Source of the DNA: Xestospongia bergquistia
Lineage: Eukaryota > Porifera > Demospongiae > Haplosclerida > Petrosiidae
DNA length: 64,000 bases
NCBI GenBank assembly: GCA_963965975.1
Contig: OZ014411.1
Coordinates: forward strand, 14,958,501-15,022,500
Direction: 5' to 3'
The notes under the pieces were generated by a model that saw only the letters and a list, made by a program, of their open reading frames with translations, was not told the DNA's origin and ran no database searches. Each line of letters starts with the position of its first letter. The stretch's first letter is position 1. Positions 1 through 47,296 of this stretch are shown in pieces. The translations under genes were made by a program, and so were the position numbers.

Positions 1-912
1 GGCTTTTTAGGCTTCTTCATTCCAAATCAACTCGTTAGCTTTTAACAGTGTGTGTAATGGATGTACAATGTGTGCACAGTTAGGTATAAACCTGTGGTAA
101 AAGTTGACTAGCCCCAGGAACTTTCTCAGCTGTTTCATTGATTGTGGCTTGGGCAACTCTGTAATGGCTTGTACTTTAGTTTCAATGGGACGAATACCGT
201 TGGCATCAACGTAATGACCTAAAATAATGAGTCCATAGTCACTTAAACGTTGAAATACTGTCTTGGAATAGAGAGAGGAGAGATAACGAGATTGGGGGTT
301 GTAAAGATGAGGCCAGTATATTTATTTGTAAGTGAGTAACTGTGTCAAGTAAGCGTTTATTGTGTGCATCTACTAGTAGTTTATGACATTGTAAGAAGTC
401 GATACCTATAATTGGATACTGTACGTCTACTATAATGAAAACCCACTTGAATGATCTGCGTAGTCCTAAATTAAGTGCAATCAGCTTGGTACTGTAGGTG
501 CGAACTGAAGTATTGTTTGCTGCCTGAAGAGTTAAATTACTAGATTTGCATTGCCTGTCAAATCGAGACGGAGGGTATACACTAACTTCTGCCCCGTATC
601 CACTAGAAAACGTGTGTTTGATGTGCGATCATGAATAAAGAATAGACGACTGTTAGTGTTGCCAGGAGCACTGGTTGTCGTCAGTGACTGGCCTGTTCCT
701 TTCCCATCCAAGTGCACCGAGGTTGGCACTTTTTGGCATCATCCCCAAAACGGTGATGATACCAACAGAGATTGGAGGGCGGTTGTGTTTTACGTGGAAC
801 AGGGCTGGGTGAATGACAAGGGGACTTAGAGGGACGATGGTTAAATGAAGGTTATGGAAAATGCATGGATTTGAATAATGACTTGAGATCTGATATCTCT
901 GAACATAATTGA

Positions 913-1515
913 TCAACATCTGAGTTGGGTGTTGATTTGAGTTACTGCTGGTGCAGCTACATCCGTTACCGTTACTTTATCAGCTAGATCTGCCTGTTCT
1001 TCTAACAACTGAGATCCTCCAGCAGAAGCTAGAACCATTCTCACATTTGGGGGTAATCCTTGTAAAAATAAGTCCCATAGGAAAGCAGTGTCTGCCATTA
1101 CTGCTTTGTCTCCAAGGAGTTGTTTCATTATTCTAAGCAGCTGAGACGGCTTCCTATCACCTAGCTCTTCAATATTGAAGAGCTGCTGTAAGGGGCGTTG
1201 CTCTGACACCATAGTTCTTGCTATCAGTTGGGTCTTAAGGCTGTTGTTATAGGGGTTGGTTGCTGGGGGCTTAAGAATTATGGCTCTTACTTCTATAGCG
1301 ACCTCTGGCATCAGAGAAGCAATTACATGATCAAATTTGGTCTTCTGTGAGGTGATATTGCGGATACTGAACTGTGCATCCACTTGAGCAAACCATACCT
1401 CAGGGTCTGCAGGCCAAAAAGGAGGGATTTTGATGTTCGCAGCAGTAACCGCTGGGATTAAGGATGATGGCTGCTCCTGTTGCTATGGTGGTTCTTGCTG
1501 CTGTTCATCTGCCAT
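913..1515 (-). pseudogene. Ty3/gypsy Gag, broken (copy A)
   Basis: Starts at the ATG at 1,515 and reads in the Gag family that contains DAQFSIRNITSQKT and LFLQGLPPNVRMVLAS. The opening Gln-rich stretch is interrupted by TAG near 1,489, where copy B has CAG. There is also a 3-base insertion relative to copy B near 1,250, and substitutions of otherwise conserved residues. Gag forms the capsid of the retrotransposon particle. This copy is a relic. Confidence 0.75.
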
Positions 1516-1543
1516 GGCATACGATCACATCTGGGGTCACCAA

Positions 1544-1748
1544 TATAATATTTTGACTGAATACTATCACAAAATAATAATAATTGGAATATCTCCCGGT
1601 CAGCTTAAATAGACACAATGATTGATTATCTGCGATGTGTTTGATGTTACAAAATCATGTAGCATGGGGGCTATGTAAATATATGCAAGAGTGTGTATGC
1701 TGATGTCAAAGAAATTAAAAAGGGAATTTCAGAATCTTAACTACCACA
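1544..1748 (-). repeat. 5' LTR of the gypsy relic (copy A)
   Basis: About 205 bp, matching the two LTRs at 35,617-35,815 and 38,047-38,243. The primer-binding region lies on its gag side (plus-strand bases just left of 1,544), with the TTGGTGACCCC core on the minus strand. Confidence 0.75.
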
Positions 1749-2798
1749 GTTGTGAGGGTGATTGGGTTATGACTGCTCCTTACACTATCAGGATACCATT
1801 GATCTCCTCTTTTAAGTAGAATTGAGGTGTGCATGGTTCATTTAAACTTGGCCAACATTCTTGAGCAAACTTTGATGAGCAAGTGATGACTATAGAACTG
1901 AGTACACACTGGGCTTCCTCCAGTAGCCTGCCCCCTCTGCACTGCACATCAACTACATCCAAGACCACATGTTGAGTTCATACTGTATATGTGTGTCGTG
2001 TGTAATAAAAGTTCTTGCATCTACTGAGGCATTTGCATCTATAAGCATATAGATGCAACCAACCCACAGGTATAGAATTTAATAGACACCGTGGCTGAAG
2101 AGGAAGACATCCATACAAGAAATAGACATAAATAATAATTAGAAAAGGGAACTCTTTGTTTAATAAAAATTTAGCTGACCCATTTCACTAAATCTATTTT
2201 TTGTCTATTTTCACAAGGGACATTTTGTAATATTTGTCAGGCAAGTGACCACAGACAGACTCAAAACATTGATATAACAATAGTTGTTGTATTGTTATGT
2301 AACTTATAAGAACAAAGGCATTTGTTCACTGCTATGTACAAATCTGTTAGCCATGGATTGATACAATTCATGGAGGTAAAGTACTTCTCACCTTAACAGT
2401 CCCAGCAATTGAAGAATTTCATCTTCCACAAGACACAATGACACTAATGAAATCATTGTACATAAATAATTAATAAATTATAAACATTCTGTGTATTGGA
2501 AACTTTTTCTGCACAATTCTATAGTTGACATTATTTTTAAGCAATTTGTTTTTGCTAAAAATGCTAATTTCTAATTTGTTTATACACAACTAACTTAAAA
2601 TCTGTGTAAAATTACAACCAAGCATTAATCTTTGCAGATTTTGTGACTTTTCTGCTACTGAATAATAATTGCCAAAGCAATGAGTACTTTCTTGCTTTGT
2701 ATAACTCCAAATATTTTATAGGGTTTGTATATGTTTTAGTAAAAGTTTAGTGTATTAGTAGTTTAATTTTAGAGGTTGATACTTTCCTTTTATAATAG
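1749..2798. other. Upstream flank of the 16-exon gene, no confident exon
   Basis: AT-rich DNA shared with copy B (38,244-39,298). It holds a perfect 10-bp inverted repeat with a 4-base loop at 2,033-2,056 (arm TGCATCTATA), present in both copies. A possible minimal start exon, ATGGAG followed by GTAAAG, lies at 2,370-2,375 and would join in phase 0 to the first ankyrin exon. There is nothing else to support it. The real 5' exons of the gene may have been lost upstream. Confidence 0.4.
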
Positions 2799-5700
2799 GT
2801 TGGATGGGCAGCTCTTCATTATGCAAGTTATGAAGGGCATATAGACATTGTTGAAGTATTACTCAACCATGGAGCTAATATCAATATTGTTACTGAGGTA
2901 ATTAAAATCATGAGAATAAGTGTGTTTTACTCTAACATTTAAGTTGTGTGAACAGACAGTACCTATCAGAGCAGACATAGCATAGATTTTATAATTGTAC
3001 TACAATAACAATGAAAAGAAAATGTGCAAAACCCTTGAAACAATAGCAGATGAATTACACTGAGTGGTATCACTTTGTAATTGGCATGCTACCAATGTAT
3101 GAGAATTTAACAAGTAGTGAATCATTATTAGAAACCTAATTCTAAATAGTAACATCCATTGTAGTAATAAAAAGTGGTGTAGTCATTATAATTTTCACTC
3201 TTGTATTTCTGCTCTAACATTTGTGGTGATTTGTTATGTCTAAGTTCATTTACAATATAGTAGACAGTAAGTATCATATAATGTAATATAACTTATATGT
3301 TTAGTGACTACATTTTTCTTTATTTTTGTCTCTTTTATATTTTTGCTCCCATATTTATGGCAATATGATTACTTGGCATCCCTATGTCTCATTAACAATA
3401 TCATAGGAGGTAAGTTTGATATAATATAATACAACCTATAATTTTATTAAATACAAAATTGTTATTTTATTTGTTTTTATATTTTCCCACATTTATGATA
3501 ATATGATTACTTGTCATATCTATGTGTCATTTAAATATAATAGTGGGTAAGTGTGATATAATGTAATATAACTTTTAAGTTTATTAAATACAATATTGTA
3601 TTTTTATTTGCTATATATTTATTTCCACATTTATCATGATATGATTACTTGTCACCTCTATGTGTCATTTACAATATGATAGCGGGTAAATGTGATATAT
3701 TGTAATACAAATTATAAGTTTATTAAATTCAATATTGTTTTATATTTTTTTCTCCCGCATTTATGGTAATATGATTACTTGTCATCCCTATGTGCCTTTT
3801 GCAATATAATAGTCGGTAAGTGTGATATAATGTAATACAACATATAAGTTTATTAAGTGCAATGTTGTTATTTTAGTTATTCTTATATTTTTTCTCCCAC
3901 ATTTATGATAATGTAAATACTTGTCATCTCTATGTGTCATTTAAATTATAATAGCTGGTAAGTGTGATAAATGTAATACAACTTATAACTTTATTGAATA
4001 CAATATTTTATGTTATTCATTCTTATATTTTTCTCCCACATTTATGATAACATGATTACTTGCTATCCCTATGTGTCATTTACGATATAATAGTTGGTAA
4101 GTGTGATATAATGTAATACAACTTATAACTTTATTGAATGCAATATTTTTATTTTATTTATTTTATATTTTTGCTCCCACATATATGATAATCTAAATAC
4201 TTCTCATCTCTATGTCAATTAAAGTATAATAGGAGGAATTTGTTATATATTGTAATACAACCTCTAATTTTATTTAATACGATATTGTTATTTTTTATTC
4301 TTATTTTTTTCCTCCCTCATTTATGACAATATTATTGCTTATCACCTAAAATGTTTCACATACAATATAATAGCCAGTAAGTGTGATATATTGTGGTGTA
4401 GTTTCTAATTCTATGCACAGCAATGTTCATTTACTCTATTGTTTGTTTCCACATTAACAGTCTTATAATTGCTTGGCATCTCAATGTATTCTTTATAATT
4501 TAGTATAATATAATTTAATATATTAGTCAATGCTACATTATCATTGTAAAATATAAGCTACTTTCATACAAAAAATTATCAAGTTTTTGTAATTTTTGTT
4601 GTCATAAGTAGGCACATTAAAGCTCTTTAATGCTTCTCACACATTTATTGGTTTTGGCTTTGTCGTGGTTTATCTCATTTAGCATATTTTAGAATGGGCT
4701 TACATTCTAGACAGAATTATTGTTTGTTTAAAGTAATTTTAGTATAATATTACAGTGTGTTTACCATTAGTAATGTAGTCTTTTGTTATTGCTCTTCATT
4801 ATAACAATTATAATGATAGCATTACTATAAACATATTATATTGCCAGGAGCCAATAACATCAAATAAGTAAGTAGTATTTAACTATGTTGGTATAGCATA
4901 AAGTAAATAGTTTCTTGACAATGACTATATAAGGAAATGTTAAATGGTCAGATATGTTCATTGTTTAGTTAATTACTTTCATGATGTTGATGTATTTAAG
5001 CTTTCAAAAAGTTGTCTTAAAGTGACTGCTATAGTTTGTCTAATAGTGTAACAGTTTTTGTAAGTTTGAGTTACACTCCCTTTAACAGTTCTTTTTTAAA
5101 ATAAGAATTATTGATTTTTTCACACTTTGTTTGACTAGATATTATCAAGGTATTGTTATGTGGTAATATTGTGATTGTTTACCTTGTATAATGATTGTTA
5201 ATTTAATTAATGTAAGTGTTGAAATTTAATTTGTTAAATTATTTACACACATTGTGGATAATTGAGAGTACATGACTCCTTGAAAAGAGATTATGTTGCT
5301 ATACTAGTATTGTGGTGTTGTTAACATAGCATAGAGACTTATAGAATTTTTTTGAGAACTTGCAGATTTGACAGTGTAATTTACCTTTTTGTTAAGTTAT
5401 TTGTTGAATTTTTTGATGAGAGAGATAAATAATTGTTTTTTTTTTCAAAATCTTTTCTGAAATGGCATGAGTAAATTGTCTTTGGCATGAGTAAATTGAC
5501 ATCTAGTTCTTCCTCTATGCTACTAAGAAGCAAGCAATAATAATATGGTCACTGACTGTTGTGAAGTGTCAAATTATTTTGAAAATGTCATGTTGATAAT
5601 TGTGCAAAAATATGTCAATTGTGATGTGATGGGTACGTATATTTTCGCACTTAAGAGTGTTACTTGTATTGATAACATTACTGTAAGAGTTGTTGCGAGT

Positions 5701-8700
5701 AGTTTGTTTAGCATAAAAGTAGTTGATTAGACTCATACTTTGTAATGTTGTCTATGTTTATAATGTTACTAGTGTACTCATGTAATGAATACATGTATGT
5801 AACACTACTAGTATAGATAATGTACAAATGTTATAATATATATTTTAGTTCACATTAATGTGGTAATTATAATTTATTTAGGTGGGATCTACTCCAGTCA
5901 TATTAGCAACAAAGAGGGGACATAAAGATATTGTTTTGATTTTAGCACAGAAAGGAGCCAATCTAGACATTGTTAACAAAGTAAGTGTTCATGTACATAT
6001 GTTATAAACAAATCTTGTATGACTGAGGATAAAATGTGGTTGTCTTAACAAAATATGGAAAATGAATGATTATCACAATGAAACTATTTTTTTAATAAAA
6101 TTAGAATAAAGATTAAAATTTTAATAAATTTTCTAATAATCTATTCCAATGCACACAAATATAACGGTGAATTGTCAAGATGTAAAACAACATCTTTGAA
6201 TTTCTCTTTAAAATTATGATTATATATATATATATATATTGAATAATTGTTGGTAGCATGGTTTGGCATAATGTATTGTTAATATATGAATAGTAAACAA
6301 GAATGACTACAGTAAACCATGCCTATATATTGTTTATATCACTGAAGCCATACACTAAACATATTATGGGGTGCAATTTAATATGTGAAATTGAAACTGC
6401 TTACTAACATGATGTCACTTTTTGCATTTTCAATTTTAGTACTGAATTTAATTTTTTTTTCTTTTGCCATATAATGTTATTGTTACGTGAACACAAAATC
6501 ATTATTCTACCAGCCTGCAGGACACCATTTTTATTTATTATTCATTGCATAATTAAAATTATTATAATGAATAATAACAAGTAAAACGTCTTTAGACCTC
6601 ACTAAGATATAAAAACTGTGCTGCCATTACTTTTGTGACAACAATATTCGACATCCACATTATGCAAGAATTTTGTTATTATAGAGTTATGTAATCATCA
6701 GTAGCATCAAATTAACGTCATGATGCCTTTATACTGTTTAACATATAGCTATCAGACCCAGAATGGTAAAACACTAATATGTAACACAGTCATTGTACAT
6801 ATGTATGCATAGTCATGTATGTAGTACATGACTATTTGTGACAAGGTCAGTCTATGAGTTATTGTATTGTTAATCTACTTTAACACAGGATGGCAATACT
6901 GCATTGCATATTGCTTGCAAAGAAGGTCGTATAAACATTATACAATCCTTGCTATGTTATGGAGCAGATATGACTATTAAGAATAAAGAGGGTAACACTC
7001 CATTAGATGAATGTCAAGACACAAGCAAGGATGAAATTGTTAGTCTTGTCTCTGAGTACAATCCAAAACGAGGTGAGACATTAAACAAAGACTATGTAGC
7101 ACTCCTGATTTTTTTATTTAGTTTTGGAAGATGTGTCTAAATGGAATATTGAGCACCTCAATGAAGAGCAAATTTTTGAAAAACCAGAGTATGGAATCAA
7201 GTTTATTATCCCACCATCATCAGTGGAAGTAGGGCAAGAAGTCAAAACTGAAGTCAACGTAGTTGCACCAGAAGAGTCAGAGATCATCTTGCCTCCTGAT
7301 GTTGAGCTTGTTAGCTGTTTTTATAAAATTGAAATAAGAGGAAAATTCTCTAGACCTATTGAGGTTTATATTCAACACAATGTTGAGCTAAGGTCACAAA
7401 AGGAAAGCCAACAGCTAGCATTTATCAGGGCTAAAGGACCACCACCCTACAAGTTTGAGTTGTTACAAACTGAATCAGACCAAGTGTTCAGACCTTATGA
7501 CAATTCTGGTGTTGTAAGAACTTCCAATTTTTCTTTTGTTGCTATTGTCATCAAAAAAATAAAGAGTGCTCTAATTCGACAGCCATCTCAAAGTTATGTA
7601 ATGACAGTCTTTTTTAAGGAGATGATAAAGTTTTGTTGGGAAATACAAGCAGTGGTCACAAAAAATCTTGGACCTTTTCTTGAGGTATGTAGACATAACA
7701 AAAAGAGAACTACAATACCATATTACCACTGCATATGTGTTCTTTTGTCTATGTTAGAGAGTGAACACAGAGAAACGTTTTGAAAACTGGAAAAGGATAG
7801 ATCCAGTTACTTTCTTTGATCCTGATATTAATGAAGTTACAATTACAAATGAGTATTATGACATTAAGCCAATGATGAATCCATTTCAAGTAAAGCTCAG
7901 TTGATTTTATGATCTTTTAAATATAGTGTCATTTAAGGTTTGTAGGAAAGTAGTTGATAAATGTCAACCAGACATGGCCCTACCTTACTTAAAATTTAAA
8001 GTCTCTCTCAAAGATAAGAAAGAACTCACTGACATAGAGCTCACTTTTAAAGGAACAAGTCAACAAATGAGTTTGGTAATTGCTAGTTACGAGTTGCAAC
8101 AAATACAGGAGAAAACAAGTGAGAGACCATAAAGATAGGATCTAGTCATGTTTCTGTTAGCATAAAACATTGCTGGACCTTTTATAAAATACTGAATATT
8201 CTAATATGTATGCTCCTTTCCTGATAGTTAACTCTGCCAGCACTATTACTCCTAGTACTGCCAGTATGACTAGTAGTCCTCCTTCTACCCATATGCAGTC
8301 ATCATATTATCCATTAGGAATATCTGATCAATTATTATGTGAGTTATGCAATATGCAAGCTGATGGATAATTTGTCATTAACTTAATTAAATCATCTTTC
8401 ACATTTTCCCATTATTAGGTAAAGAGCCCAAGAAAAAACACCTGATGACACTACTTCACAAAATTAAATACATGTGGAATACTATTGGTGAACAACTTGA
8501 AGTGCGTTATGGTGATATAAAGTCTGCTGAATATAATGTGGCATATAGTGATACCACAAAACTCTCAGAAGTCCTTCAGGTGTGGATAGATAAGAGAACG
8601 TGTGAAGTATCTTGGAGAATGATCATCACTGTTGTCAAGGAACCACCTGTAGAAAACAAAGTAGTAGCTGAGACAATAAATCAATTCTTAACAAGACCTG

Positions 8701-9244
8701 ATATTAGGAATGAATATCTCCCTTCTCATCAACCTGGTAAAGTTAATAAAATTATTTTTAACACCTGTTCCTATATTACTCTATAGGTCAAGTGTTTACC
8801 ACTTTTAATTCTCTACCTCCAGTTAAACCAAAACCTACTGAGATAAGAGGTATAACTATATAGCTAGATATTAAATAACTCGTTTGTATGTTTGTTATAT
8901 TGCAGATCATCCTACTACTAAACCTCCAATTGCACCAAAACCTGCTAAAAGAAAGGTATGCACAACTAAATAGACTATAAGATACATTATCGGTCAACCT
9001 TTATCTGGTACCCAACCTCCAAATATACCACAATTTATTGAGAAGATAAATATGCAACAATTAGACAACTTTCTTTATATGCCATGAACATATTTGAAGG
9101 GATTTAATTTTTTTCTAGTAAAAGTAGATGAAATGGAACAAGAAGCTCCCTTACAATCATTGAATCCTATTGGAGTAAGTTAATTATAGTTATTATGATT
9201 TATTACTATATTGTGCTCATATATTTTCTGATATGCACATGCAC

Positions 9245-9299
<55 letters not shown>

Positions 9300-10718
9300 A
9301 TATATATAAAAGAATGTGTTTATTAATATAATGAATGCATCTCTCCATTAGTTTGCTGCTCATTGTCTTCATAACCAAGCTAGACAATGGGAAGAAAAAG
9401 ATAATGATTTGATTGTAGCTGTTAAACATATGGCCAGACTGATGTTCCATATGTCAAAGTTTGCCCAGTAAATGTTATTGAGTGAAATGTATACTTCAAT
9501 ATGTAGTTTATAAAATGTTCATATAACTGTACATCACAAATACAAATATACCTGCTGTAGTTTAAATAGTCAGTAATGAAATTAATACTATATATAACCT
9601 AAGTATTGTATACTAATGTATTACTTTCTGTTTAATGATAATTACAAATACCTTTCCTTTATAGAGATGAAAAAAGTGATGTTAATTCTATAAAAGATTT
9701 TATTGAAACAGCTAATCTTATTGTCAAAGACAGTAAGGAGGTTGTTAAAATAGCTAAACAAGTTACTGAGCTCTGTACAGACACACAACTAAAAAATGTG
9801 AGTTACAGAGTTTGATAACAAAAATATTAATACATAGAGTACCTTTAATGTGTGCATGTGAGTAATAAAATTATAATTAGTTAAGACTTCTTATATGAAT
9901 TGATTGTAACTGTAACATTTATTCACACTAGAGTCTGGTCATTTACAAACTTCTCTTTAATTCCATTTAACACATTCCTTTATAGACTCTGTCGAAAATT
10001 CTTGATGGTATTCTAAATTATGCCACACAACTCAAAATAAATGTTGGTGTGCATGCAAGACGAGGAGAAGATGGTAAGTTATAAACTGTGGGTGTATTAG
10101 TAGTCAATCATTGCTATAACTCACAAACAGAGGTACACTTATATAATCAAGACAATATTTTTCCTTTAATTAATAATAAGCTTAGCAGAGCAACAAAAAT
10201 AATTAACAATAACACAATATTTTTGTAAGGTTTGAAATAATTACAGTTGATCTAAAAATGTAAGTATATAGTCATCATGTTATACAACTCGTTTTACAAA
10301 TGTGAGAGTAAACTATATGATGAGTTATATGATAGATTGTTTCTAAGACTTAGAGTAATTAAGTACTATATTCCACACAGTGAGTACTCCTATGGTTAAA
10401 AGCTGTTGTTTGCATTATAATAATGTGGCTATATTATTTTGCATAATGTTAACCTTTCTTTAGCAAGTCTATATTACACATGTACATATATTTATGTTAA
10501 TATAGTATTACACTACAATGTACCTTATCCACCTTGTTTAATTCCTTGATTGTATAGACCTAGAAGGAGATAAAGAAGCTACTAGTTTGTTGACAGTTAA
10601 TGCTGAGAATCTCATGACTGCTGTTGGTGAAGTACTTGATACCACAGAGAGTGCTTTAGTAAAAGTACCTTCAGATGCTCGTGCACACTTGACTGGTGTA
10701 AGCTGGATTAAAAAATAA
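2799..10718 (+). CDS. Ankyrin-ZU5-UPA-Death-vinculin tail protein, copy A (5' end not found)
   Basis: Exons by splice sites and phase: 2799-2897, 5882-5980, 6889-7072, 7122-7684, 7758-7889, 7938-8118, 8228-8338, 8419-8736, 8787-8849, [8906-8955 probably skipped], 9119-9174, 9352-9467, 9665-9797, 9986-10073, 10558-10718. Omitting 8906-8955 gives 768 codons with the frame open throughout. The first two exons are 99 bp, exactly one ankyrin repeat each (WAALHYASYEGHIDIVEVLL). A ZU5 domain follows (about residues 148-270, YGIKFIIPPSS), then a UPA-like region (290-420), a Thr/Ser-rich link, a Death domain (about 470-560, with WNTIGEQL and VLQVWIDK) and a Pro-rich link. The last ~165 residues resemble vinculin tail: KHMARLMFHMSKF, CTDTQLKNTL, TQLKINVGVHA, NAENLMTAV. 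ZU5-UPA-Death is the UNC5/ankyrin/PIDD arrangement; Vt binds F-actin and PIP2. The role is inferred: coupling death-fold or adhesion signalling to the cytoskeleton. No start codon is assigned. Confidence 0.8.
3240..4430. repeat. Intronic minisatellite, ~135-bp unit, about 9 copies (copy A)
   Basis: Units begin near 3,265, 3,412, 3,546, 3,685, 3,813, 3,957, 4,096, 4,235 and 4,375. Each has a GGTAAGTGTGATATAATG-like core, a T-rich tract, CTCCCACATTTATG and a TATGTGTCATT segment. The array fills the intron between the first and second ankyrin exons. The first and last units are the most diverged, which is normal for old tandem arrays. The same array is present in copy B at 39,735-40,925. Confidence 0.85.
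4431..5881. other. Rest of ankyrin intron 1, nothing recognised
   Basis: AT-rich sequence between the minisatellite and the second ankyrin exon. No conserved reading frame. The 61-codon open frame at 5,545-5,730 is interrupted by substitutions in copy B and is judged chance. Confidence 0.5.
7073..7121 (+). other. 49-bp micro-intron in the 16-exon gene
   Basis: GTGAG donor and TTTAG acceptor between the third ankyrin exon and the ZU5 exon. Copy A has 49 bp, so retention would shift the frame. In copy B the intron is 48 bp with no stop, so retention would insert 16 residues. Confidence 0.7.
9248..9300. repeat. (TA)n microsatellite
   Basis: About 25 TA units in the intron before the first vinculin-tail exon. 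Copy B has a (CA)n tract at the matching place (45,846-45,900). Confidence 0.9.
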
Positions 10719-11632
10719 CACTGAACTAGTGAACTCAATTGATTGCTGCGCTTTTTACATGTACCATTTAGTTACCTCAACTAGTAGTGTAGTTTTTTAG
10801 ATGTATTGGTATTTGTAGTTGCTGATTTTGTTTTCCTCAAAATGATCTCATTTCAATTGAGTATTCATTTTACTGATATGGCTACAAAATTAAACTGTTA
10901 ACCTCGCCCATTCCAACTCGACCACAAGTTGTGCATATTCCCTCCACCAATTACTCCGTGAGATAAGTATCCATTACAGCTCTCAACAATTTAGTTTTCA
11001 GTTTTTTGAAGTTAATGATAGTGCAACCAACGCCAAAATAGAACATTTCCAATACAACAAGAAGTTAAAAACAATGTAACACTAAGTATTACTGAATGGT
11101 CCCAGTAGATGGTATATAAGATAACATACACATGAACTATTACTAAATAAAAACTTAAAACAAGTACTAGAGTTCCTTATAACAGTCACAGGAGATAGTA
11201 ACACAAGATAGAACTGTAATTTAACAAAAAACCTGATAATGTACAATTAACAATAAATAATAGATAGAATCACAGGAGTTATTATCATATCAAACATTAA
11301 TAAAACACTTGACAGTTTCAGAAAATGTAATACAGGTACATACAATATGTATAATATAATAGGAAGTTGAAAACATTATATAACACAAAGTATTACAGAA
11401 GAGTCTAACAGGAATTTGCATGTAACGTAACATACACAGGAGCTATTGCTGGACAAAAGTCAGAATACAGTAGTACAACTATAGTAGTAGAAACTTCCAT
11501 GGATAAATCAATGTAACAAGAACCTAATGTAACAGATAAGTAACAAGACTTTAAACAAAGATACTAGTAAATTGTTGACACTAGTAGATTTGTTGTGGAT
11601 ATGTGATTTACAAAAGTATGTAATTTTAGTGT
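10719..11632. other. Intergenic; two diverged ~290-bp repeats
   Basis: From 11,057 to about 11,630 two related segments follow each other. Each opens with an AGGAAGTTGAAAAC / AAGAAGTTAAAAAC motif and contains GTATTAC and ACATACACAGGAGCTATT-like strings. Copy B has the same pair at 54,238-54,815. The first ~330 bp include the unmatched bridge between duplication blocks 1 and 2. No gene seen. Confidence 0.55.
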
Positions 11633-17524: not shown

Positions 17525-17750
17525 TGTGATATCCTCTCAACTCTTTTCAACTCTTTAACACTTAGGTTTTGTTTGTAATTATGTTAGTTAGTGTCTCTAC
17601 TGTAAATTGGTGCTAATTGTGTTAATAGTTTTGTCACTTAGTTCTTTTGTTTATTGTTATTGATTTTGTATAAATAGGATTTAGTTTTTACTTGTACTAG
17701 AGTTTCCATTCTATCCATTAAAATTATTTCAATTTAACTTAAACACCACA
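17525..17750 (+). repeat. 5' LTR
   Basis: 226 bp, TG...CA ends. A TATAAATA box at 17,669-17,676 is a likely core promoter for the genomic transcript. Confidence 0.95.
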
Positions 17751-17752
17751 AT

Positions 17753-17764
17753 TGGCGACGAGAG
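17753..17764 (+). other. tRNA-Ser primer-binding site
   Basis: TGGCGACGAGAG, two bases after the LTR. Its first 10 bases are the reverse complement of the CTCGTCG-CCA 3' end typical of some metazoan serine tRNAs, as in mag-family elements. Confidence 0.75.
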
Positions 17765-17785
17765 TGGTGGATTTTCGCTATTATC

Positions 17786-20056
17786 ATGGCAACTTCACAG
17801 TTCGGAACTCTCAAAGAATTTAACTCAAATGAGGGATCAATCACCTCATATCTGGAACGTGTTGACCTTTACTTTACTGCAAACTCTGTTCCAGGGGACA
17901 AGCAAGTTCCCATTTTTCTGACCTGTATTGGTACGTCTACGTATACTCTTCTCAGTGATCTCCTTGCTCCATCTCCGCCCAGCACCAAGTCTCTGGCCGA
18001 GATCTCAGATGTTCTACGGAAGCATTTTGAACCAAAGAGAGCCATCATAGCTGAACGGTATCACTTTCACAAACGTAATCAAGCTGTGGGGGAATCTATT
18101 GCTGATTATGACGCTGCTCTACGTAAGCTAGCGACTAACTGTAAATTCGGGGACTACCTAGAGGATGCTCTTCGTGACCGATTCGTATGTGGGCTGAGTA
18201 ACGAAGCGATACAGCGACGGTTACTTTCCGAGCCTGACCTAACTCTCACCAAAGCGATGGAACTAGCGCAAGGTATGGAAGCCGCTGAACGTAACTCCAA
18301 ATCCCTTAAAGGTACCGAGTTCGCCGTTAGAAAACTTCGTGGTAAACCTCCGCCTCGACCTAAGACGCAACAACCGTGTTACCGATGTGGGAAGTCAAAT
18401 CACTCACCTATGGATTGTAAATTCAAGGACGTTGAATGTCATTCATGTGGAAAGAAAGGCCATATTGCCCCAGTTTGCCGAACTAAACATCAGAAACGGA
18501 CCAACGCAGCCACTGGACGAATTAAGAAACCTTTCACAGCCAATGTTGTGAATGAGGACAGCATCGACGCTACCGACTCCGATAGTGATGAACACTATTT
18601 ATTTAAGCTGCGTGAATCATCCTCCCATCCAATGGAAGTAACCGTGACCGTCGAAGACAAACCACTTGTTATGGAGGTAGACAGCGGCGCCGCCGTATCT
18701 ATCATCTCAGAAGCAACTCGAACGAAATTATTTCCACATCTGAAATTACATAAGTCCAAGGTTGTCCTGAAGACATACACGGACGAACCTATACAAGTTA
18801 AGGGACAACTTAATGTCCACGTTAGCTACAAAGGACAGACTTCACCTCTAAAATTGGTGGTGGTTAATGGGGCTGGTCCAAACCTCTTTGGAAGGAACTG
18901 GCTGAAGTACATCCGACTGGACTGGCACAGAATTGCCACGGTACAGCCTGGGTCCCAAGGAGTGCAAGCCCTGTTGCAACAGCACTCAAACCTCTTTAAA
19001 GATGAGCTAGGAACTGTCAATTCATACAAGGCAACTATTCACATCAAACCCGAAGCCACACCGAAATTTTTCAAACCTCGTCCTGTCCCATTTGCAATTA
19101 AAGGTGCTGTAGGAAAGGAATTGGATCGATTGGAACAACAAGGAATAATCAGGAAGGTCGACCACAGTGACTGGGCTGCAACTATTGTTGTAGTGCCTAA
19201 GAAAGATGGAAGGTTCCGCCTGTGTGGTGACTACAAGGTCACAATAAACCAAGCTCTCACAGTAGACCAGTACCCACTTCCCAAGCCTGAAGATTTGTTT
19301 GCTACATTAGCAAATGGAAAACATTTTACCAAGTTAGATCTTTCACAAGCCTACTTACAACTAGCACTGGCGGAAGATTCTATGAAGTATGTCACAATAA
19401 ACACACACCAAGGTCTATACCAATTCACTAGATTGCCATTTGGAATTACATCAGCACCAGCTATTTTTCAGAGGCTCATGGATAAGATCCTACACGGACT
19501 GCCAGGAGTCATTTGTTATATTGATGACATATTAGTCACAGGAAAAGATGACGAAGAACATCTTCGACATTTAGCAGCTGTGCTAAACAGATTAGAAGAG
19601 CACAATTTCAGACTTAAGAAGGACAAATGTCACTTCCTTATACCCTCTGTCGAGTACCTTGGACATCAAATCGATCAAGAAGGAATTCATGCAGTACCTA
19701 GCAAAGTGGAAGCCATCACCAACGCTCCACCACCTACTAACGTCCAAGAGCTTCGGTCATTTCTTGGCTTACTCAATTACTACGGAAAATTTATTCGAAA
19801 TCTCTCAAGTATTTTACACCCACTCAACGGTCTGCTTCGTGCAAATCAAAAGTGGAAATGGACTGACGAATGCACAAAAGCATTTAAAGAAGCCAAAAGA
19901 CAATTAGTTTCTGCCAATGTATTGACCCATTATAATCCCACTCTACCCATCATTCTTGCAGCTGACGCCTCTGCCTATGGAATAGGAGCTGTAATTTCTC
20001 GTCCTGCCAGATGGATCAGAAAAACCAATTTCCTTTGCCTCACGCACACTAACTAG
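17786..20056 (+). CDS. Gag-Pol, first part: Gag, protease, reverse transcriptase, start of RNase H
   Basis: Begins with ATG 36 bp after the LTR. Gag occupies about residues 1-245 and ends in two CCHC zinc knuckles (CYRCGKSNHSPMDC and CHSCGKKGHIAPVC). An aspartic protease active site follows (MEVDSGAAVS, near residue 298). Reverse transcriptase has GRFRLCGDYKVT, LDLSQAYLQL, the catalytic YIDD box and the FLGLLNYYGKFI thumb. RNase H begins at AADASAYGIGA, then the frame shifts near 20,003 and a stop comes at 20,056. Gag and Pol are in a single frame. The shift lies inside RNase H, not at a gag/pol boundary, so a mutation or assembly error is more likely than programmed frameshifting. Confidence 0.93.
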   Translation: MATSQFGTLKEFNSNEGSITSYLERVDLYFTANSVPGDKQVPIFLTCIGTSTYTLLSDLLAPSPPSTKSLAEISDVLRKHFEPKRAIIAERYHFHKRNQAVGESIADYDAALRKLATNCKFGDYLEDALRDRFVCGLSNEAIQRRLLSEPDLTLTKAMELAQGMEAAERNSKSLKGTEFAVRKLRGKPPPRPKTQQPCYRCGKSNHSPMDCKFKDVECHSCGKKGHIAPVCRTKHQKRTNAATGRIKKPFTANVVNEDSIDATDSDSDEHYLFKLRESSSHPMEVTVTVEDKPLVMEVDSGAAVSIISEATRTKLFPHLKLHKSKVVLKTYTDEPIQVKGQLNVHVSYKGQTSPLKLVVVNGAGPNLFGRNWLKYIRLDWHRIATVQPGSQGVQALLQQHSNLFKDELGTVNSYKATIHIKPEATPKFFKPRPVPFAIKGAVGKELDRLEQQGIIRKVDHSDWAATIVVVPKKDGRFRLCGDYKVTINQALTVDQYPLPKPEDLFATLANGKHFTKLDLSQAYLQLALAEDSMKYVTINTHQGLYQFTRLPFGITSAPAIFQRLMDKILHGLPGVICYIDDILVTGKDDEEHLRHLAAVLNRLEEHNFRLKKDKCHFLIPSVEYLGHQIDQEGIHAVPSKVEAITNAPPPTNVQELRSFLGLLNYYGKFIRNLSSILHPLNGLLRANQKWKWTDECTKAFKEAKRQLVSANVLTHYNPTLPIILAADASAYGIGAVISRPARWIRKTNFLCLTHTN

Positions 20057-21713
20057 TGCAGAGAAAAACTATTCACAGCTTGAAAAAGAAGCTCTCTCTT
20101 TGATTTTTGGAGTTCGTAAATTCCACCAATATCTTTACGGAAGAAAATTTACCCTCATAACCGACCACAAACCCCTCACTGCAATTTTTGGCTCAAAGAA
20201 AGGAATTCCTTCTTTAGCTGCTGCTCGTTTACAGCGATGGGGACTTCTATTGTCAGGTTATGATTACAATATTTGTTTTAAACCTACCGAAAACCACAGC
20301 AATGCTGATGGACTGTCAAGACTTCCACTACATGACCAAGAAGCAGTTGGTGAAACGAAAACAGTTACCATCTTCAATCTCTCTCAAATTCAAGCCTTAC
20401 CAGTCACCTCTAATCAAGTTCAGGTTGCCACTAGGTGTGATCCCATTCTTAGCAAGATTGTTGATTATGTGAGGAGGGGATGGCCAAAGCAAGTACCAGA
20501 TAACATTCGACCATATCAATCAAAACAAGAAGAAATTACTATTGAAAGTGGATGCCTACTATGGGGTATTCGTGTCATTATTCCAAAAAGACTACAAAAT
20601 CAAATTCTACAGACACTTCACCAGAACCACCCAGGAGTCACTAGAATGAAAGCTATAGCTAGAAGCTACATGTGGTGGTTGGGAATTGACAAGGATATTG
20701 AGAATTTAGCAAAGTCATGTCTTCCTTGCCTTGAAAACAAATCTCAACCAGCTGCTGCACCTTTACACCCGTGGATCTGGCCTACCACACCATGGAAAAG
20801 AATTCACATCGATTTTGCAGGTCCTTTCCTGGACAAAATGTTCCTGGTAGTGGTGGATGCACACTCAAAATGGCCAGAAGTAATTCAAATGCCTTCAACA
20901 ACCTCTTTCAAAACTATTGAAGCACTCGGGAATCTCTTTGCAAAGTACGGTCTCCCAGAACAATTAGTATCAGACAATGGACCACAGTTCACCTCTGAAG
21001 AATTTGCCGAGTTTATGAAAGTTAATGGAATTAAGCATATTCGTAGTGCTCCATATCACCCCTCTACAAACGGGTTGGCGGAAAGGTTTGTTCAAACTTT
21101 CAAGAGAGCCATGAAGACTAGTGCTCAAGATGAACCAAATCTCAGTACTCGATTATCACAGTTCTTACTTGGATATCGATCAACACCGCATGCTACCACT
21201 AATGTTTCTCCTGGAGAATTATTTCTACAACGGAAGCTTCGTACGCGTTTTGATCTATTGAAACCTAACATTGAATCTGTCGTAAACACAAAACAGAGCA
21301 ACCAGAAAACTCATCATGATAAGCATGTCAAGCAGCGACACTTTTCAAAAGGGCAACTTGTGATGGTCAAGGACTTTATTCTCAAGAAATGGATACCTGG
21401 AAAAATAGTGAACACTACTGGACCACTGTCTTATTCAATTCAGATTGAAAATGGAAGGATAATTCGCCGTCATGTTGATCACATCAAATCTCGTTCGGTG
21501 ATTACTGTCAAATCTCCTTCACAACCTTATACCAATGATACTATGGAGTTTGATTTGTTTCCAACACCAAGTACTGATCATTTTGAACCTACCCCTACAC
21601 CAGTCGTTCAACAAGAACCTGTTCAAGAACGTCGCTACCCATTAAGGTCAAGTCGACATCCTCCTTCACGATATCAACCAGGACTGTCGCACTTAACAGG
21701 GGAGGAAATGTGA
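20004..21713 (+). CDS. Pol, second part: RNase H, integrase
   Basis: This is the +1 frame relative to the first part and is open from about 20,004. It carries the rest of RNase H (LEKEALSLIFGVRKFHQYL, ITDHKPL, DGLSRLP) and a complete integrase. The integrase has an HHCC zinc-binding N-terminus (HQNHPGVTRM ... CLPCLENK), the DDE core with HIDFAGPF, VSDNGPQFTS and NGLAERFVQTFKRAM, and a C-terminal KGQLVMVKDF region. It ends five bases inside the 3' LTR, which is usual for these elements. RNase H removes the RNA template and integrase inserts the cDNA. Confidence 0.92.
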   Translation: MPDGSEKPISFASRTLTSAEKNYSQLEKEALSLIFGVRKFHQYLYGRKFTLITDHKPLTAIFGSKKGIPSLAAARLQRWGLLLSGYDYNICFKPTENHSNADGLSRLPLHDQEAVGETKTVTIFNLSQIQALPVTSNQVQVATRCDPILSKIVDYVRRGWPKQVPDNIRPYQSKQEEITIESGCLLWGIRVIIPKRLQNQILQTLHQNHPGVTRMKAIARSYMWWLGIDKDIENLAKSCLPCLENKSQPAAAPLHPWIWPTTPWKRIHIDFAGPFLDKMFLVVVDAHSKWPEVIQMPSTTSFKTIEALGNLFAKYGLPEQLVSDNGPQFTSEEFAEFMKVNGIKHIRSAPYHPSTNGLAERFVQTFKRAMKTSAQDEPNLSTRLSQFLLGYRSTPHATTNVSPGELFLQRKLRTRFDLLKPNIESVVNTKQSNQKTHHDKHVKQRHFSKGQLVMVKDFILKKWIPGKIVNTTGPLSYSIQIENGRIIRRHVDHIKSRSVITVKSPSQPYTNDTMEFDLFPTPSTDHFEPTPTPVVQQEPVQERRYPLRSSRHPPSRYQPGLSHLTGEEM

Positions 21714-24682: not shown

Positions 24683-25263
24683 AATGTTAAATGAATTGAT
24701 TAATTGGTTTTATTTTACCATATATATTTAATCTGGTTTGCAATAAACAGTAAATACCATTGCTTGCAATAAACATAAATGTAAATCTTGTGTTAATCAT
24801 GTAAACATTTTAAAGTTTTATATATATATATCCTATATCAGAATTTATTAATAAAAGAATGCTTCATATTAAAACCTTTAATTTAATAATAAGGACCTTT
24901 ATTCACTGGAATTTGGCTAGTTCCCACTAATAGCAACCTATAATAATGTGATATTAGTTAAATAATACAAAGTGTTATATGTAGCATCACCGGAGTCATA
25001 TCAAATATTTGTTGTTGTGTTCAACAACCATCAAATTTAACAAGTCATAGAGGCAACATTAAAGATAAAACCTAAAATAATAAAATATTTTAGTTTTGTC
25101 ATGATCTGTCTGTTGGTTCATCTGTCCACTCACTCATATTTCTCTTTCCATATGCAAACTGGTACATCAATCTAACAATATAAATAACATTAACATAATA
25201 TTAAGACATTACCAACTATACCATTTTAGCATTAATATGTTATATCTACAACTAATTTTAAGC
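24683..25263. other. AT-rich intergenic stretch
   Basis: No repeats of note. A minus-strand open stretch at about 25,095-25,165 reads RLMYQFAYGKRNMSEWTDE after a TTAG acceptor, then a stop. It could be a terminal exon of an unknown gene. Confidence 0.35.
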
Positions 25264-26398: not shown

Positions 26399-26934
26399 AA
26401 CCATTACAGAATCAAACTCTTCCTATATTTTGAGATCTGTTAATACACTAATCAAACAGTTAATGGTTTGGCTAAAACATGCATGGATGAAGAAATGAAC
26501 AGAGATGTAATCGTAGAGACAGATGGACACACCAAAATAATACTAAGTAATGTGATGACCCAAAAGACAATCTTGCTTGTTCTTTAGAGTCAACAAAAAA
26601 AACTCTACTTTTTTCTCTATGTCTTGCTATCGCATGAGCTATTTACAAATTGAGAAGCAGAACATATAACTATCTCTGTATACCAGTAGCATATATGCTT
26701 TAAGGATTAATTGGTTGAAGAGCTAAGTTCTTCAGCCAGTTGTCTCTTGTTGATCACCTCAAGTGAGAAGGCATACCTGAGAAAAGAATGTTATAAATAG
26801 GTATTTTAGAAAAAAATATAAGCAGCTTTATAACAGCTAAAATATTTTACAACAACCTAAATAAGTGGGAGGTATAATGATGATAATGTCATTCTCAGAG
26901 AGGTAGTCAGGGAATGTGACTAGGTTGAAAAAAT
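26399..26934. other. Intergenic, one possible minus-strand terminal exon
   Basis: At about 26,705-26,775 the minus strand reads YAFSLEVINKRQLAEELSS then a stop, after a CTCAG acceptor. It resembles an open stretch at 30,185-30,265, YCLQVINPEARVALKPYEE. The product is unknown. Confidence 0.3.
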
Positions 26935-36755: not shown

Positions 36756-36793
36756 ATAATGACTGCTCCTTACACTATCAGGAGGAGAGATAA

Positions 36794-42200: not shown

Positions 42201-45200
42201 TGTTTAGCATAAAAGTAGTTGATTAGACTCATACTTTGTAATGTTGTCTATGTTTATAATGTTACTAGTGTACTCATGTAATGAATACATGTATGTAACA
42301 CTACTAGTGTAGATGATGTACAAATGTTATAATATATATTTTAGTTCACATTAATGTGGTAATTATAATTTATTTAGGTGGGATCTACTCCAGTCATATT
42401 AGCAGCAAAGAGGGGACATAAGGATATTGTTTTGATTTTAGCACAGAAAGGAGCCAATCTAGACATTGTTAACAAAGTAAGTGTTCATGTACATATGTTA
42501 TAAACAAATCTTGTATGACTGAGGATAAAATGTGGTTGTCTTAACAAAATATGGAAAATGAATGATTATCACAATGAAACTATTTTTTAGTAAAATTAGA
42601 ATAAAGATTAAAATTTTAATAAATTTTCTAATAATCTATTCCAATGCACACAAATATAACGGTGAATTGTCAAGATGTAAAACAACATCTTTGAATTTCT
42701 CTTTAAAATTATGATTATATATATATATATATATTGAATAATTGTTGGTAACATGGTTTGGCATAATGTATTGTTAATATATGAATAGTAAACAAGAATG
42801 ACTACAGTAAACCATGCCTATATATTGTTTATATCACTGAAGCCATACACTAAACATACTATGGGGTGCAATTTAATATGTGAAATTGAAACTGCTTACT
42901 AACATGATGTCACTTTTTGCATTTTCAATTTTAGTACTGAATTTATTTTTTTTTCTTTTGCCATATAATGTTATTGTTACGTGAACACAAAATCATTATT
43001 CTACAAGCCTGCAGGACACCATTTTTATTTATTATTCATTGCATAATTAAAATTATTATAATGAATAATAACAAGTAAAACGTCTTTAGACCTCACTAAG
43101 ATATAAAAACTGTGCTGCCATTACTTTTGTGACAACAATATTCAACATCCACATTATGCAAGAATTTTGTTATTATAGAGTTATGTAATCATCAGTAGCA
43201 TCAAATTAACGTCATGATGCCTTTATACTGTTTAACATATAGCTATCAGACCCAGAATGGTAAAACACTAATATGTAACACAGTCATTGTACATATGTAT
43301 GCATAGTCATGTATGAAGTACATGACTATTTGTGACAAGGTCAGTCTATGAGTTATTGTATTGTTAATCTACTTTAACACAGGATGGCAATACTGCATTG
43401 CATATTGCTTGCAAAGAAGGTCGTATAAACATTATACAATCCTTGCTATGTTATGGAGCAGATATGACTATTAAGAATAAAGAGGGTAACACTCCATTAG
43501 ATGAATGTCAAGACACAAGCAAGGATGAAATTGTTAGTCTTGTCTCTGAGTACAATCCAAAACGAGGTGAGACATTAAACAAAGACTATGTAGCACTCCT
43601 GATTTTTTATTTAGTTTTGGAAGATGTGTCTAAATGGAATATTGAGCACCTCAATGAAGAGCAAATTTTTGAAAAACTAGAGTATGGAGTCAAATTTATT
43701 ATCCCACCATCATCAGTGGAAGTAGGGCAAGAAGTCAAAACGAATGTCAACGTAGTTGCACCAGAAGAGTCAGAGATCATCTTGCCTCCTGATGTTGAGC
43801 TTGTTAGCTGTTTCTATAAAATTGAAATAAGAGGAAAGTTCTCTAGACCTATTGAGGTTTATATTCAACACAATGTTGAGCTAAGGTCACAAAAGGAAAG
43901 CCAACAGCTAGCATTTATCAGGGCTAAAGGACCACCACCCTACAAGTTTGAGTTGTTACAAACTGAATCAGACCAAGTGTTCAGTCCTTACGACAATTCT
44001 GGTGTTGTAAGAACTTCCAATTTCTCTTTTCTTGCTATTGTCATCAAAAAAATAAAGAGTGTTCTATTTCGACAGCCATCTCACAGTTATGTAATGACAG
44101 TCTTCCTCAAGGAGATGATGACATTTTGCTGGGAAATACAAGCAGTGGTCACAAAAAATCTTGGACTTTTTCTTGAGGTATGTAGTCATAAGAAAAAGAG
44201 AACTATAATACCATATTACCACTGTATGCATGTGTTTTGGTCTATATTAGAGAATAAACACCGAGAAACGTTTTGAAAATTGGAAAAGGATAGATCCAGT
44301 TACTATTTTTGATCCTGACATCAATGAAGTTACAATTACTAATGAGTGTTATGACATTAAACCAATGATGAATCCATTTCAAGTGAAGTCCTAGTTGATG
44401 TTGTGAAGTTAAATTTTGTATTGTTAAAGGTTTCTAGGAAACTCATTGATCGATGTCAACCAGACACTGCTGTACTTCCTTACTTAAAATTTAAAGTCTC
44501 TCTCAAAGATGAGAAGAAACTCACTGACCTAGAGCTGACTTTTAATGGAATAAGTGAACAAATGAGTTTGGTAATTGCTTGTTATGAATTGCAACAAATA
44601 CAGGAGACAACAAGTAAGTGACATTAAAGATAGAATATACTCATGTTATATCAGCATAAAATATTGCCTAAGCTTTTCCAAAATATTGAAGTAATATAAT
44701 GAATGTGTGTTCCTTTTGTTATTATAGGTCACTCTACCAGCACTCTTTCCACCCCTACTCCTACTACTGTCAGCATACCTACTTCCACTCCTACTAATGC
44801 AAGTACTTCCACTAGTAGTCCTTCTTCTATCTATACACAGTCCTCATATCCATTAGGAATATCTGATGAATTATTATGTGAGTTATGCAATATGAAAGTT
44901 AATGGATAAGTTGTCATTAACTTAATTGAATTAACTTTCACATTTTCTCATTATTAGGTAAAGAGCCCAAGAAAAAACACCTGATGACACTACTTCACAA
45001 AATTAAAGACAAGTGGAATACCATTGGTGAACAACTTGAAGTGCGTTATGGTGATATAAAGTCTGCTGAATATAATGTGAAATATGATGATACCACAAAA
45101 CTCTCAGAAGTCCTTCAGGTGTGGATAGATAAGAGAACATGTGAAGTGTCTTGGAGAATGATCATCACTGTTGTCAAGGAGCCACCTGTAGAAAACAAAG

Positions 45201-45842
45201 CAGTAGCTGAGAAAGTGTATCAATTCTTAACAAGACCTGATATCAGGAATGATTATCTCTCTTCTCATCAACCTGGTAAAGTTAACAAAATTGTTTTTAA
45301 CACCTGTTTCCGTGTCACTCTATAGGTCAAGTGATTACCACTTTTAATTCTCCACCTCCAGTTCAATCAAAACCTTCTGAGATAAGAGGTATAACTATAT
45401 AGCTAAATATTAAATGACTCGTTTGTATATTGCAGATCATCCTACTACTAAACCTCTAATTGCACCAAAACCAGCCAAAAAGAAAGGTACCCACAACTAA
45501 ATAGACTCGTAGATATACTCATATAGGTCAATCTTTATCTGGTGCCCAACCTCCAAATATACCACAACTTGGTGAGAAAGTAGATATGCAACAGCTAGAC
45601 AAATTTCTTTCTATACCATGAACATATTTAAAGAGATTTAGAGATTTAAATATTTAATCTCTTTCCAGTGAAAGTAGTAGATGAAATGGAACAAGAAGCT
45701 CCCTTACAGTCAACTAATCCTATTGGAGTAAGTTAATCAGTTATTATGATTTATTACTATGACATTATGTGACATAATTACATAAAACTCTTACATATTG
45801 TAGTATAACATGTTTCACAAAGTAGTAATTATAAACACAAAT

Positions 45843-45880: not shown

Positions 45881-47296
45881 GCACGCACAAAGACACACAC
45901 AAATATACATATATATACATGTAAATGTGTCTATTAATATTATGATCGGATCCCTCTATTAGTTTGCTGCTCATTGTCTTCATAAACAAGCTAAACAATG
46001 GGAAGAGAAAGACAATGTTATGATACTAGCTACTAAACGCATGGCCAGACTGATGATGCAAATGTCAAAGTTTTCCCAGTAAGTGTTATAGAGTGAAATG
46101 TATACTTCAGTATGTAGTTTATAAAAAGTTCATGGAACTAAACATTACAAATACAAGATAATTGTCTATATTTAGCATTGAAATTAGTACTATACCCTGA
46201 GTAAATGTATTAATGTATTACTTTCAGTTTGATAATAATTATGATAACCTCTCCTCTATAGAGATGAAGAAGGTGATGTAAATTCTATTGAAGATTTTAT
46301 CAAAACAGCTAATCTTATTGTCAAAGATAGTAAGGAGGTTGTTAAAATAGCTACATAAGTTGCTGAGCTCTGTATAGACACACAACTGAAAAATGTGAGA
46401 TACGGACTTTGATAACAAAAATATTAATACATAGAGAACCTTTAATGTGTGCATGTGAGTAATAAAATTATAATTAGTTAAGACTTCTTATACGAATTGA
46501 TTAAAGCTACGACATTTATTCACACCTGACTTTATTTGTTTGCAAACTTCTCTTTAATTCCACAAATTCCTTTATAGACTCTGTTGCAAGCTCTTGATGG
46601 TATTCCAACTTATGCCACACAACTCAAAATAAATGTTGGTGTGCATGCAAGAAGAGATGGTAAGCCATGAACTGTATGAGGAGTATTAGTACTCAACCAT
46701 TGACAAAACTCAGAAAACAGAAATATACTTATTTCACCAAGACAATATTTTTCCCTTTCATTAATAATAAGATTAAGAGAGTAACAGTAGCAACTAATAG
46801 TGACATGGTAGTTTTGTAATGTTTTAAATAATTAGAATTTGTCTAAAAATATAAGTGTATAAATTCACATAGTCATCATGTTGTACAACTCATTCTACAA
46901 ATGTCAAAACAAACTACAAGATTTGACATATTGTGTCTTACAGAGTAACTAAAGTACTATGTTCCACACGGTGGCTACTCTCATGATTAAAGCTGTTGTC
47001 AATTTTATAATAGTTTGGCTACATTATTATTGTATAATATTAATGTTTCTTTATATTACATATGTACATATATGTATGTTACATATAATATTACAATGTA
47101 TCTTAACCACCATGTCTAATTCCTTGATTTTATAGACCTAGAAGGAGATATAGAAGCTACTAGTTTGTTGACAGTTAATGCTGAGAATCTTATGACTGCT
47201 GTTGGTGTAGTACTTAACACCACAGAGAGTGCTTTAGTAAAAGTACCTCCAGAAGCTCGTGTATGCTTGACGGGTCTGAGCTGGATTAAAAAATAA
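39299..47296 (+). CDS. Ankyrin-ZU5-UPA-Death-vinculin tail protein, copy B (stop in tail)
   Basis: Exons: 39299-39397, 42378-42476, 43383-43566, 43615-44177, 44251-44382, 44430-44613, 44728-44877, 44958-45275, 45326-45388, 45436-45486, 45527-45571, 45669-45727, 45963-46078, 46262-46394, 46578-46659, 47136-47296. All 16 junctions keep phase and the sum is 2,439 nt (813 codons). Domains run in the order of copy A, with a longer Ser/Thr/Pro link (STPTPTTVSIPTSTPTNAST) before the Death domain (WNTIGEQLEVRYGDIKSAEY). The tail has KRMARLMMQMSKFSQ, IPTYATQLKINVGVHA and NAENLMTAVGV. TAA at 46,356-46,358 (codon 720) falls in the second tail helix where copy A has CAA. Translation would end there, removing about 93 residues. 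It is either an early pseudogene or a truncated paralogue. The start is not found. Confidence 0.78.
39735..40925. repeat. Intronic minisatellite, ~135-bp unit (copy B)
   Basis: Same nine units as 3,240-4,430, with unit order and unit-specific variants preserved. The array has therefore not been turned over since the large duplication. Confidence 0.85.
43567..43614 (+). other. 48-bp micro-intron, in frame if retained
   Basis: GTGAG...TTTAG, length divisible by three and free of stops, unlike the 49-bp version in copy A. Confidence 0.65.
45846..45900. repeat. (CA)n microsatellite
   Basis: CA repeats with GCAC variants in the intron before the first tail exon, at the position of the (TA)n tract of copy A. 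Confidence 0.9.

What the first reader, a model, noticed from the sequence alone, without database searches (positions are those of the whole stretch)
2799..10718. Ankyrin-ZU5-UPA-Death module fused to a vinculin tail
Fourteen exons join in phase into one open frame. Its first part is the ankyrin/UNC5/PIDD signalling layout and its last ~165 residues match vinculin tail in order and spacing: an aromatic-basic start with ARQWEEKDN, KHMARLMFHMSKF, EVVKIAKQV...CTDTQLKN, TQLKIN, ATSLLTVNAENLMTAV and a basic C-terminus. The Pro-rich linker ahead of the tail parallels vinculin's own linker. Vinculin tail binds F-actin and PIP2, so the protein could tie death-fold signalling to the actin cortex. I know of no described protein with this set of domains. 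The fused arrangement appears in both copies.
Basis: partly seen in the sequence, partly recalled or inferred. Interest (0 to 1): 0.9.

Follow-up and report, generated by a model that had tools for sequence, protein, structure and literature searches.

The report
Death-domain proteins with vinculin tails
In an unnamed animal genome (perhaps a sponge's), a family of about thirty ankyrin-repeat/death-domain genes carries the actin-binding tail of the cell-adhesion protein vinculin, which suggests signalling proteins built to sit on the actin skeleton.

Summary
The fusion is real and recurs beyond the window. In copy A, ANK, ZU5-like and Death-like exons are followed in phase by a true vinculin tail (Pfam Vinculin 122 bits, E 3e-35; vinculin structures to 5.7e-29). 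I listed 37 first tail exons in the genome: 3 belong to tandem vinculin-like genes; 32 of the other 34 lie 0.6-4.3 kb downstream of this Death exon, same strand. Of 20 spliced models from 19 loci, none needed a frameshift or stop; 8 reach the last tail exon, one has no tail. Tail exon borders, and the exon before them, match the genome's own vinculin genes: capture of intron-bearing DNA. Median tail dN/dS is 0.37.

Corrections: copy A stays open only if a 50-nt exon is skipped or uses a GC donor; copy B has a stop inside the tail; ZU5 and Death are marginal in copy A alone; UPA was not detected; the gene's 5' end lies outside the window. No fused transcript was found. Best reading: a lineage-specific family of death-fold scaffolds tethered to F-actin. 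Function is inferred.

The parts
2799..2897 (+). Copy A exon 1 of those in the window: ankyrin repeat, phase 0
   Evidence: not the gene start
5882..5980 (+). Copy A exon 2: ankyrin repeat
6889..7072 (+). Copy A exon 3: ankyrin repeats
7122..7684 (+). Copy A exon 4: ZU5-like
   Evidence: 21.0 bits, at the cut-off
7758..7889 (+). Copy A exon 5: segment after ZU5 (UPA position; UPA not detected)
7938..8118 (+). Copy A exon 6: segment after ZU5 (UPA position; UPA not detected)
8228..8338 (+). Copy A exon 7: Ser/Thr/Pro-rich linker
8419..8736 (+). Copy A exon 8: Death-like domain
8787..8849 (+). Copy A exon 9: Pro-rich linker, also in tail-less paralogues
8906..8955 (+). Copy A exon 10: 50-nt linker exon that breaks the frame with its GT donor
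9119..9174 (+). Copy A exon 11: vinculin-like linker end (DEMEQEAPLQ..NPIG)
9352..9467 (+). Copy A exon 12: vinculin tail exon 1 (116 nt)
9665..9797 (+). Copy A exon 13: vinculin tail exon 2 (133 nt)
9986..10073 (+). Copy A exon 14: vinculin tail exon 3 (88 nt)
10558..10718 (+). Copy A exon 15: vinculin tail exon 4 with TAA
39299..43566 (+). Copy B exons 1-3 (39299-39397, 42378-42476, 43383-43566): ankyrin repeats
43615..44613 (+). Copy B exons 4-6 (43615-44177, 44251-44382, 44430-44613): ZU5-like and following segment
44728..45275 (+). Copy B exons 7-8 (44728-44877, 44958-45275): linker and Death-like domain
45326..45727 (+). Copy B exons 9-11 (45326-45388, 45436-45486, 45669-45727): linkers, all in phase
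45963..47296 (+). Copy B exons 12-15 (45963-46078, 46262-46394, 46578-46659, 47136-47296): vinculin tail with an in-frame TAA at 46356

Best explanation
Copy A is one member of a family of about 30 genes with ankyrin repeats, ZU5, a further segment, a Death domain, a proline-rich linker and a vinculin tail. An ancestor captured, as DNA with its introns, the last linker exon and the four tail exons of a resident vinculin gene, and the tail later multiplied with the family and was probably exchanged between members. Proposed mechanism: the ankyrin repeats bind a target, the ZU5 part holds or releases the Death domain, the Death domain recruits death-fold partners, and the vinculin tail tethers the protein to F-actin; since no vinculin head was found in it, the tail should not be masked. 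Shown: the order of domains, its recurrence, open frames, shared exon borders with vinculin, constraint on the tail, and conservation of the I997 position. Inferred: a single spliced transcript, actin binding, Death-domain signalling, and any role in immunity, cell death or cortex sensing. Copy B is probably decaying.
For: Vinculin tail by profile and structure-sequence match. 32 of 34 non-vinculin first tail exons are 0.6-4.3 kb downstream of a listed Death exon, same strand. 19 of 19 fetched loci, all chosen for a tail hit, have ANK-ZU5-next segment-Death-tail in order on one strand. 20 of 20 spliced Death-to-tail models need no frameshift or stop, 8 of them to the last tail exon. The first tail exon is 116 nt in 19 of 20 models and the second is 133 nt in 14 of 20, as in two of three resident vinculin genes (116, 133; the third 116, 115). 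The exon with DEMEQEAPLQ precedes the tail in vinculin and in fused genes, and was not found in five tail-less paralogues. Median dN/dS of full tails 0.371 (56 usable of 66 pairs). Vinculin-head profile positions were matched only at C1:25.60-25.62 Mb and C13.
Against: No fused transcript was found. Copy A needs an exon skip or a GC donor; copy B has a stop in the tail; L023 has a stop in its front half. 12 of 20 models are cut or fitted spuriously before the end of the tail, or lack it; L021 and L022 contain implausibly short exons, and L028 shows no DEMEQEAPLQ exon. The aligner prefers splice sites that keep the frame. Death is weak, UPA undetected, and the ZU5 profile found no solved structure. 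Of ten F-actin hydrogen-bond residues named in PMC10721916, Q983, N1026 and E1042 are mostly kept, R976, N980, R987, Q1018, R1039 and E1040 are not, and R1008 was not tabulated; five of those six differ in the resident vinculins too.
Confidence: 0.6

Rival explanations
1. Two neighbouring genes: a death-domain gene ending around exon 9 or 10, and a separate headless vinculin-tail gene that was duplicated along with it.
For: Death exons without a tail are common: 36 of 66 tabulated places have no first tail exon within 6 kb. Tail-only sets exist: the second set in L012 and 2 of 34 first tail exons without a listed Death exon. No fused transcript was found.
Against: Phases join through the linker in the models; the first tail exon begins at an AG acceptor in phase 0 with no start codon of its own; 32 of 34 have a Death exon upstream.
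Confidence: 0.12
2. The fusion is made but the tail does not anchor to actin; it serves another purpose, such as dimerisation or lipid binding.
For: Several reported actin contacts are changed, and E1021, a reported directional catch-bond residue, is changed in 11 of 12 fused tails while kept in the two resident vinculins readable there (PMC10721916, passages).
Against: I997 (14 of 15), V1001 (12 of 12), N1026 (12 of 12) and E1042 (11 of 12) are kept.
Confidence: 0.2
3. The tail is a hitchhiking relic that is transcribed or not but does nothing.
For: Copy B has a stop in the tail and copy A a frame problem ahead of it; one gene in L025 has lost its tail.
Against: Open frames and tail dN/dS of 0.37.
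Confidence: 0.08

Closest known systems
Vinculin (tail domain)
   Same: The C-terminal ~169 residues, the last linker exon and the exon borders
   Different: No vinculin head; the front is ANK-ZU5-Death instead
Ankyrins, UNC5 and PIDD (ZU5-UPA-Death proteins; layout recalled)
   Same: ZU5 followed by a further segment and a Death-like domain, with ankyrin repeats in front as in ankyrins
   Different: UPA not detected; a vinculin tail follows the Death domain; many copies
FADD-type Death domain
   Same: The profile of 22 Death exons finds FADD chains at E 0.0011
   Different: Weak match; no death-effector domain hit in the assembled part
Sponge death-fold and NLR expansions (PMC8195603, PMC12909245; passages)
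   Same: Large lineage-specific gene families with varied domain joins
   Different: No NACHT or TRADD-N hit in the assembled part; 'vinculin' does not occur in the main text of PMC8195603

Membership tests
Vinculin tail (domain) | Significant Vinculin profile match over the tail | tested here: met
   PF01044 122.2 bits, cut-off 38.1; solved vinculin chains to 5.7e-29
Vinculin tail (domain) | F-actin-binding residue I997 | tested here: met
   Ile in copy A and in 14 of 15 fused tails
Vinculin tail (domain) | Five-helix bundle fold | not testable with these tools
Vinculin (whole protein) | Vinculin head domains | tested here: not met
   Only profile 619-847 matched in copy A
ZU5-UPA-Death proteins | ZU5 | tested here: met
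   21 of 21 members at E<=0.1, best 8.1e-7; copy A exon 21.0 bits at the cut-off of 21; no solved structure found by the profile
ZU5-UPA-Death proteins | UPA | tested here: not met
   No hit in Pfam or with a 7-row profile against solved structures
ZU5-UPA-Death proteins | Death domain | tested here: inconclusive
   Copy A 14.6 bits, below 22.6; 18 of 22 members at E<=1, best 2.6e-7; FADD by profile 0.0011; model too poor, pLDDT 51.5
NOD-like receptors | NACHT domain | tested here: not met
   No NACHT hit in the assembled parts; the N-terminus is not assembled

The most novel reading that the evidence does not exclude
A large, clustered and recombining family of cytoskeleton-tethered death-fold sensors: ankyrin fronts that differ between members joined to a comparatively uniform actin-anchoring vinculin tail, acting as guards of the cortical actin skeleton or as a recognition repertoire whose Death domain fires when the tether or the target changes.
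Probability: 0.25. Interest if true: 0.9.

Novelty: new variant of a known kind. Interest (0 to 1): 0.7.

Why it matters
Vinculin's actin-binding tail moved onto a multicopy death-fold family would link death-fold signalling to the actin cortex directly and testably. It is also a clear case of a new protein architecture made by capture of intron-bearing DNA, followed by multiplication and probable exchange of the tail between paralogues.

Tried and rejected
AlphaFold models of the Death exon (22 rows, pLDDT 51.5) and the ZU5 exon (21 rows, pLDDT 43.9) were too poor, so no fold search was run. Protein searches for a fused transcript gave none: one search found one vinculin, P0001 (2815-base contig; taken as cDNA by inference because the gene is intron-rich here); one search found 16 proteins; the 11 that I read are Death-exon reading frames, P0002 and P0003 running on into exon 9 through the intron; one search scored only the 7994 candidates sharing most words. 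ZU5 autoproteolysis was considered from recall and not tested. Synonymous divergence is lower in the tail than in the Death exon (median dS 0.17 and 0.38 for tail exons 1 and 2, 0.84 for Death; 20 members, 190 pairs; tail exon 1 below Death in 176 of 190). That could mean exchange, later capture or synonymous constraint; since vinculin against fused genes is also lowish in tail exon 1 (0.16-0.67), I do not rest the case on it. The value for tail exons 3-4 includes spurious fits in loci cut short and is not used. 'Sponge' is a guess from recalled sponge death-fold expansions and because 6bfi (sponge VIN1 by recall; the tool prints only VIN1) is the best solved match of the tail; against it, P0001 scores vertebrate vinculins above 6bfi. 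An earlier count said 18 loci and calls P0001 a sponge mRNA; the recount is 19 loci, and the second point is unproven.

Full report
What is there. Copy A has 15 candidate exons between 2799 and 10718, with AG acceptors and, before the last, GT donors. Pfam finds ankyrin repeats, a marginal ZU5 and a strong Vinculin match at the C-terminus. The last 169 residues match solved vinculin chains over nearly their whole length. With that exon and its GT donor the frame breaks at once; without it, or with a GC donor four bases on, it stays open. Copy B has the exon in phase but a TAA at 46356 in its tail. A and B are 96.0% identical over 275-8219, 87.8% over 8248-9209 and 81.7% over 9295-10867 of A, so they differ most where the Death and tail parts lie.

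A family, not a one-off. A Pfam Vinculin search of the whole genome gave 54 matches, many of them the first tail exon. One search combined Death-exon and tail matches: of 37 first tail exons, 3 are the tandem vinculin-like genes at C1:25.60-25.62 Mb, 32 lie within 6 kb downstream of a listed Death exon on the same strand (0.6-4.3 kb between starts), and 2 (C3:8155374, C1:21298530) have none listed. I tabulated 66 of the 150 scored Death places, picked from the best; 30 of the 66 have a tail and 36 do not. Two of the 30 have two tail sets downstream. The tool states that such counts are lower bounds.

Gene models. Nineteen loci were fetched because of a tail hit, plus the stretch upstream of the window. 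All 19 carry ANK, ZU5, the next segment, Death and tail in order on one strand. A spliced protein-to-DNA aligner gave 20 Death-to-tail models (L025 holds two genes). None needs a frameshift or stop. Eight reach the last tail exon (L011, L012, L014, L015, L017, L018, L020, L021); 3 are cut inside it by the end of the fetched stretch (L010, L013, L024); 8 are cut earlier or end in spurious pieces for that reason (L016, L019, L022, L023, second gene of L025, L026, L027, L028); the first gene of L025 has a vinculin-like linker exon but no tail. L021 and L022 contain implausibly short exons, and L028 shows no DEMEQEAPLQ exon. The front halves gave 21 models with one stop, in L023. The aligner favours splice sites that keep frame; the constant tail exon lengths are the part least open to that doubt: 116 nt in 19 of 20 models, then 133 nt in 14, 130 in three and 137 in one.

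Origin. The resident vinculin-like genes have a 78-nt linker exon, then tail exons of 116, 133 and 90-91 nt; one (V1) has a 115-nt second exon and a frameshift. Two of the three linker exons carry DEMEQEAPLQ, the third a variant; the border to the tail, after N(P/A)IG, is the same as in the fused genes. Six places without a first tail exon nearby were fetched. Five have a whole Death exon; they have an exon-9-like linker but neither the DEMEQEAPLQ exon nor a tail was found in the ~3 kb after it (a 38% match at E 2.7 in L031 is chance level); the sixth, L035, has a broken Death exon beside the end of L026's gene. The captured piece therefore seems to begin with vinculin's last linker exon. In the tail tree the vinculins form one clade (100/99). 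The tree is unrooted, and L021, L010 and L017 fall on the vinculin side of a 99/99 branch, so one capture is neither shown nor excluded. Front and tail trees disagree: L010 and L017 group with L012 and L013 in front (98/96) but not in the tail. I read that as exchange of tails between paralogues.

Selection and residues. Median dN/dS is 0.371 for full tails (12 members, 56 usable of 66 pairs), 0.215 for Death in the same set (63 pairs) and 0.535 for the linker (163 pairs, 20 members). Fused tails keep D974 and Q994 (15 of 15), I997 (14 of 15), V1001 and N1026 (12 of 12) and E1042 (11 of 12); they change K975 in 12 of 15 and E1021 in 11 of 12. R976, N980, R987, Q1018, R1039 and E1040 are not kept; five of these six differ from the vertebrate residue in all readable resident vinculins too, R976 in two of three. 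PMC10721916 (passages) names I997 as needed for F-actin binding and E1021 as a directional catch-bond residue. I infer actin binding with altered force behaviour. The absence of a head suggests no head-tail lock.

Function. An ankyrin front, ZU5, Death and an actin anchor, in genes that cluster on C6 8.38-8.63 Mb and on C1, resemble immune-type expansions; PMC8195603 and PMC12909245 (passages) describe death-fold and NLR expansions in sponges. A role in immunity or cell death is inference.

In print. Searches were read as listings; passages were read of PMC6820919, PMC10721916, PMC8195603 and PMC12909245. None of what I saw describes a Death-vinculin tail protein. The six papers holding 'vinculin', 'death domain' and 'ZU5' together were not opened; their titles and abstract starts point elsewhere. 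Subscription papers are mostly not held.

Noticed in passing
17738-21713 (+): Two long overlapping open frames (772 and 572 aa) that read by eye like a Gypsy-type retroelement; not searched.
   Followed up: no
1-1482 (-) and 36400-38020: Retroelement-like fragments by eye lie just upstream of both copies and inside the duplicated block.
   Followed up: partly
21995-22954 (-): 319-aa open frame with a GHSLGGA motif as in lipases (motif recalled).
   Followed up: no
3255-4456 and 39754-40955: About nine ~140-nt tandem repeat units inside the first intron of both copies.
   Followed up: no
25227-26508: Five copies of a ~245-nt spaced direct repeat.
   Followed up: no
L012:8174-9501: A second vinculin linker-and-tail set downstream of a complete fused gene, with no Death exon matched before it.
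   Followed up: partly
L025:1175-2200: Death gene with a vinculin-like linker exon but no tail before the next gene's ankyrin exons: probable tail loss.
   Followed up: partly
L029 (C1:25597871-25599857): One of three tandem vinculin-like genes has a shortened second tail exon and a frameshift near its end.
   Followed up: partly
L032:1932-2066: A weak second Death-like match (E 0.21) downstream of a tail-less Death exon; other C-terminal modules may exist in the family.
   Followed up: no
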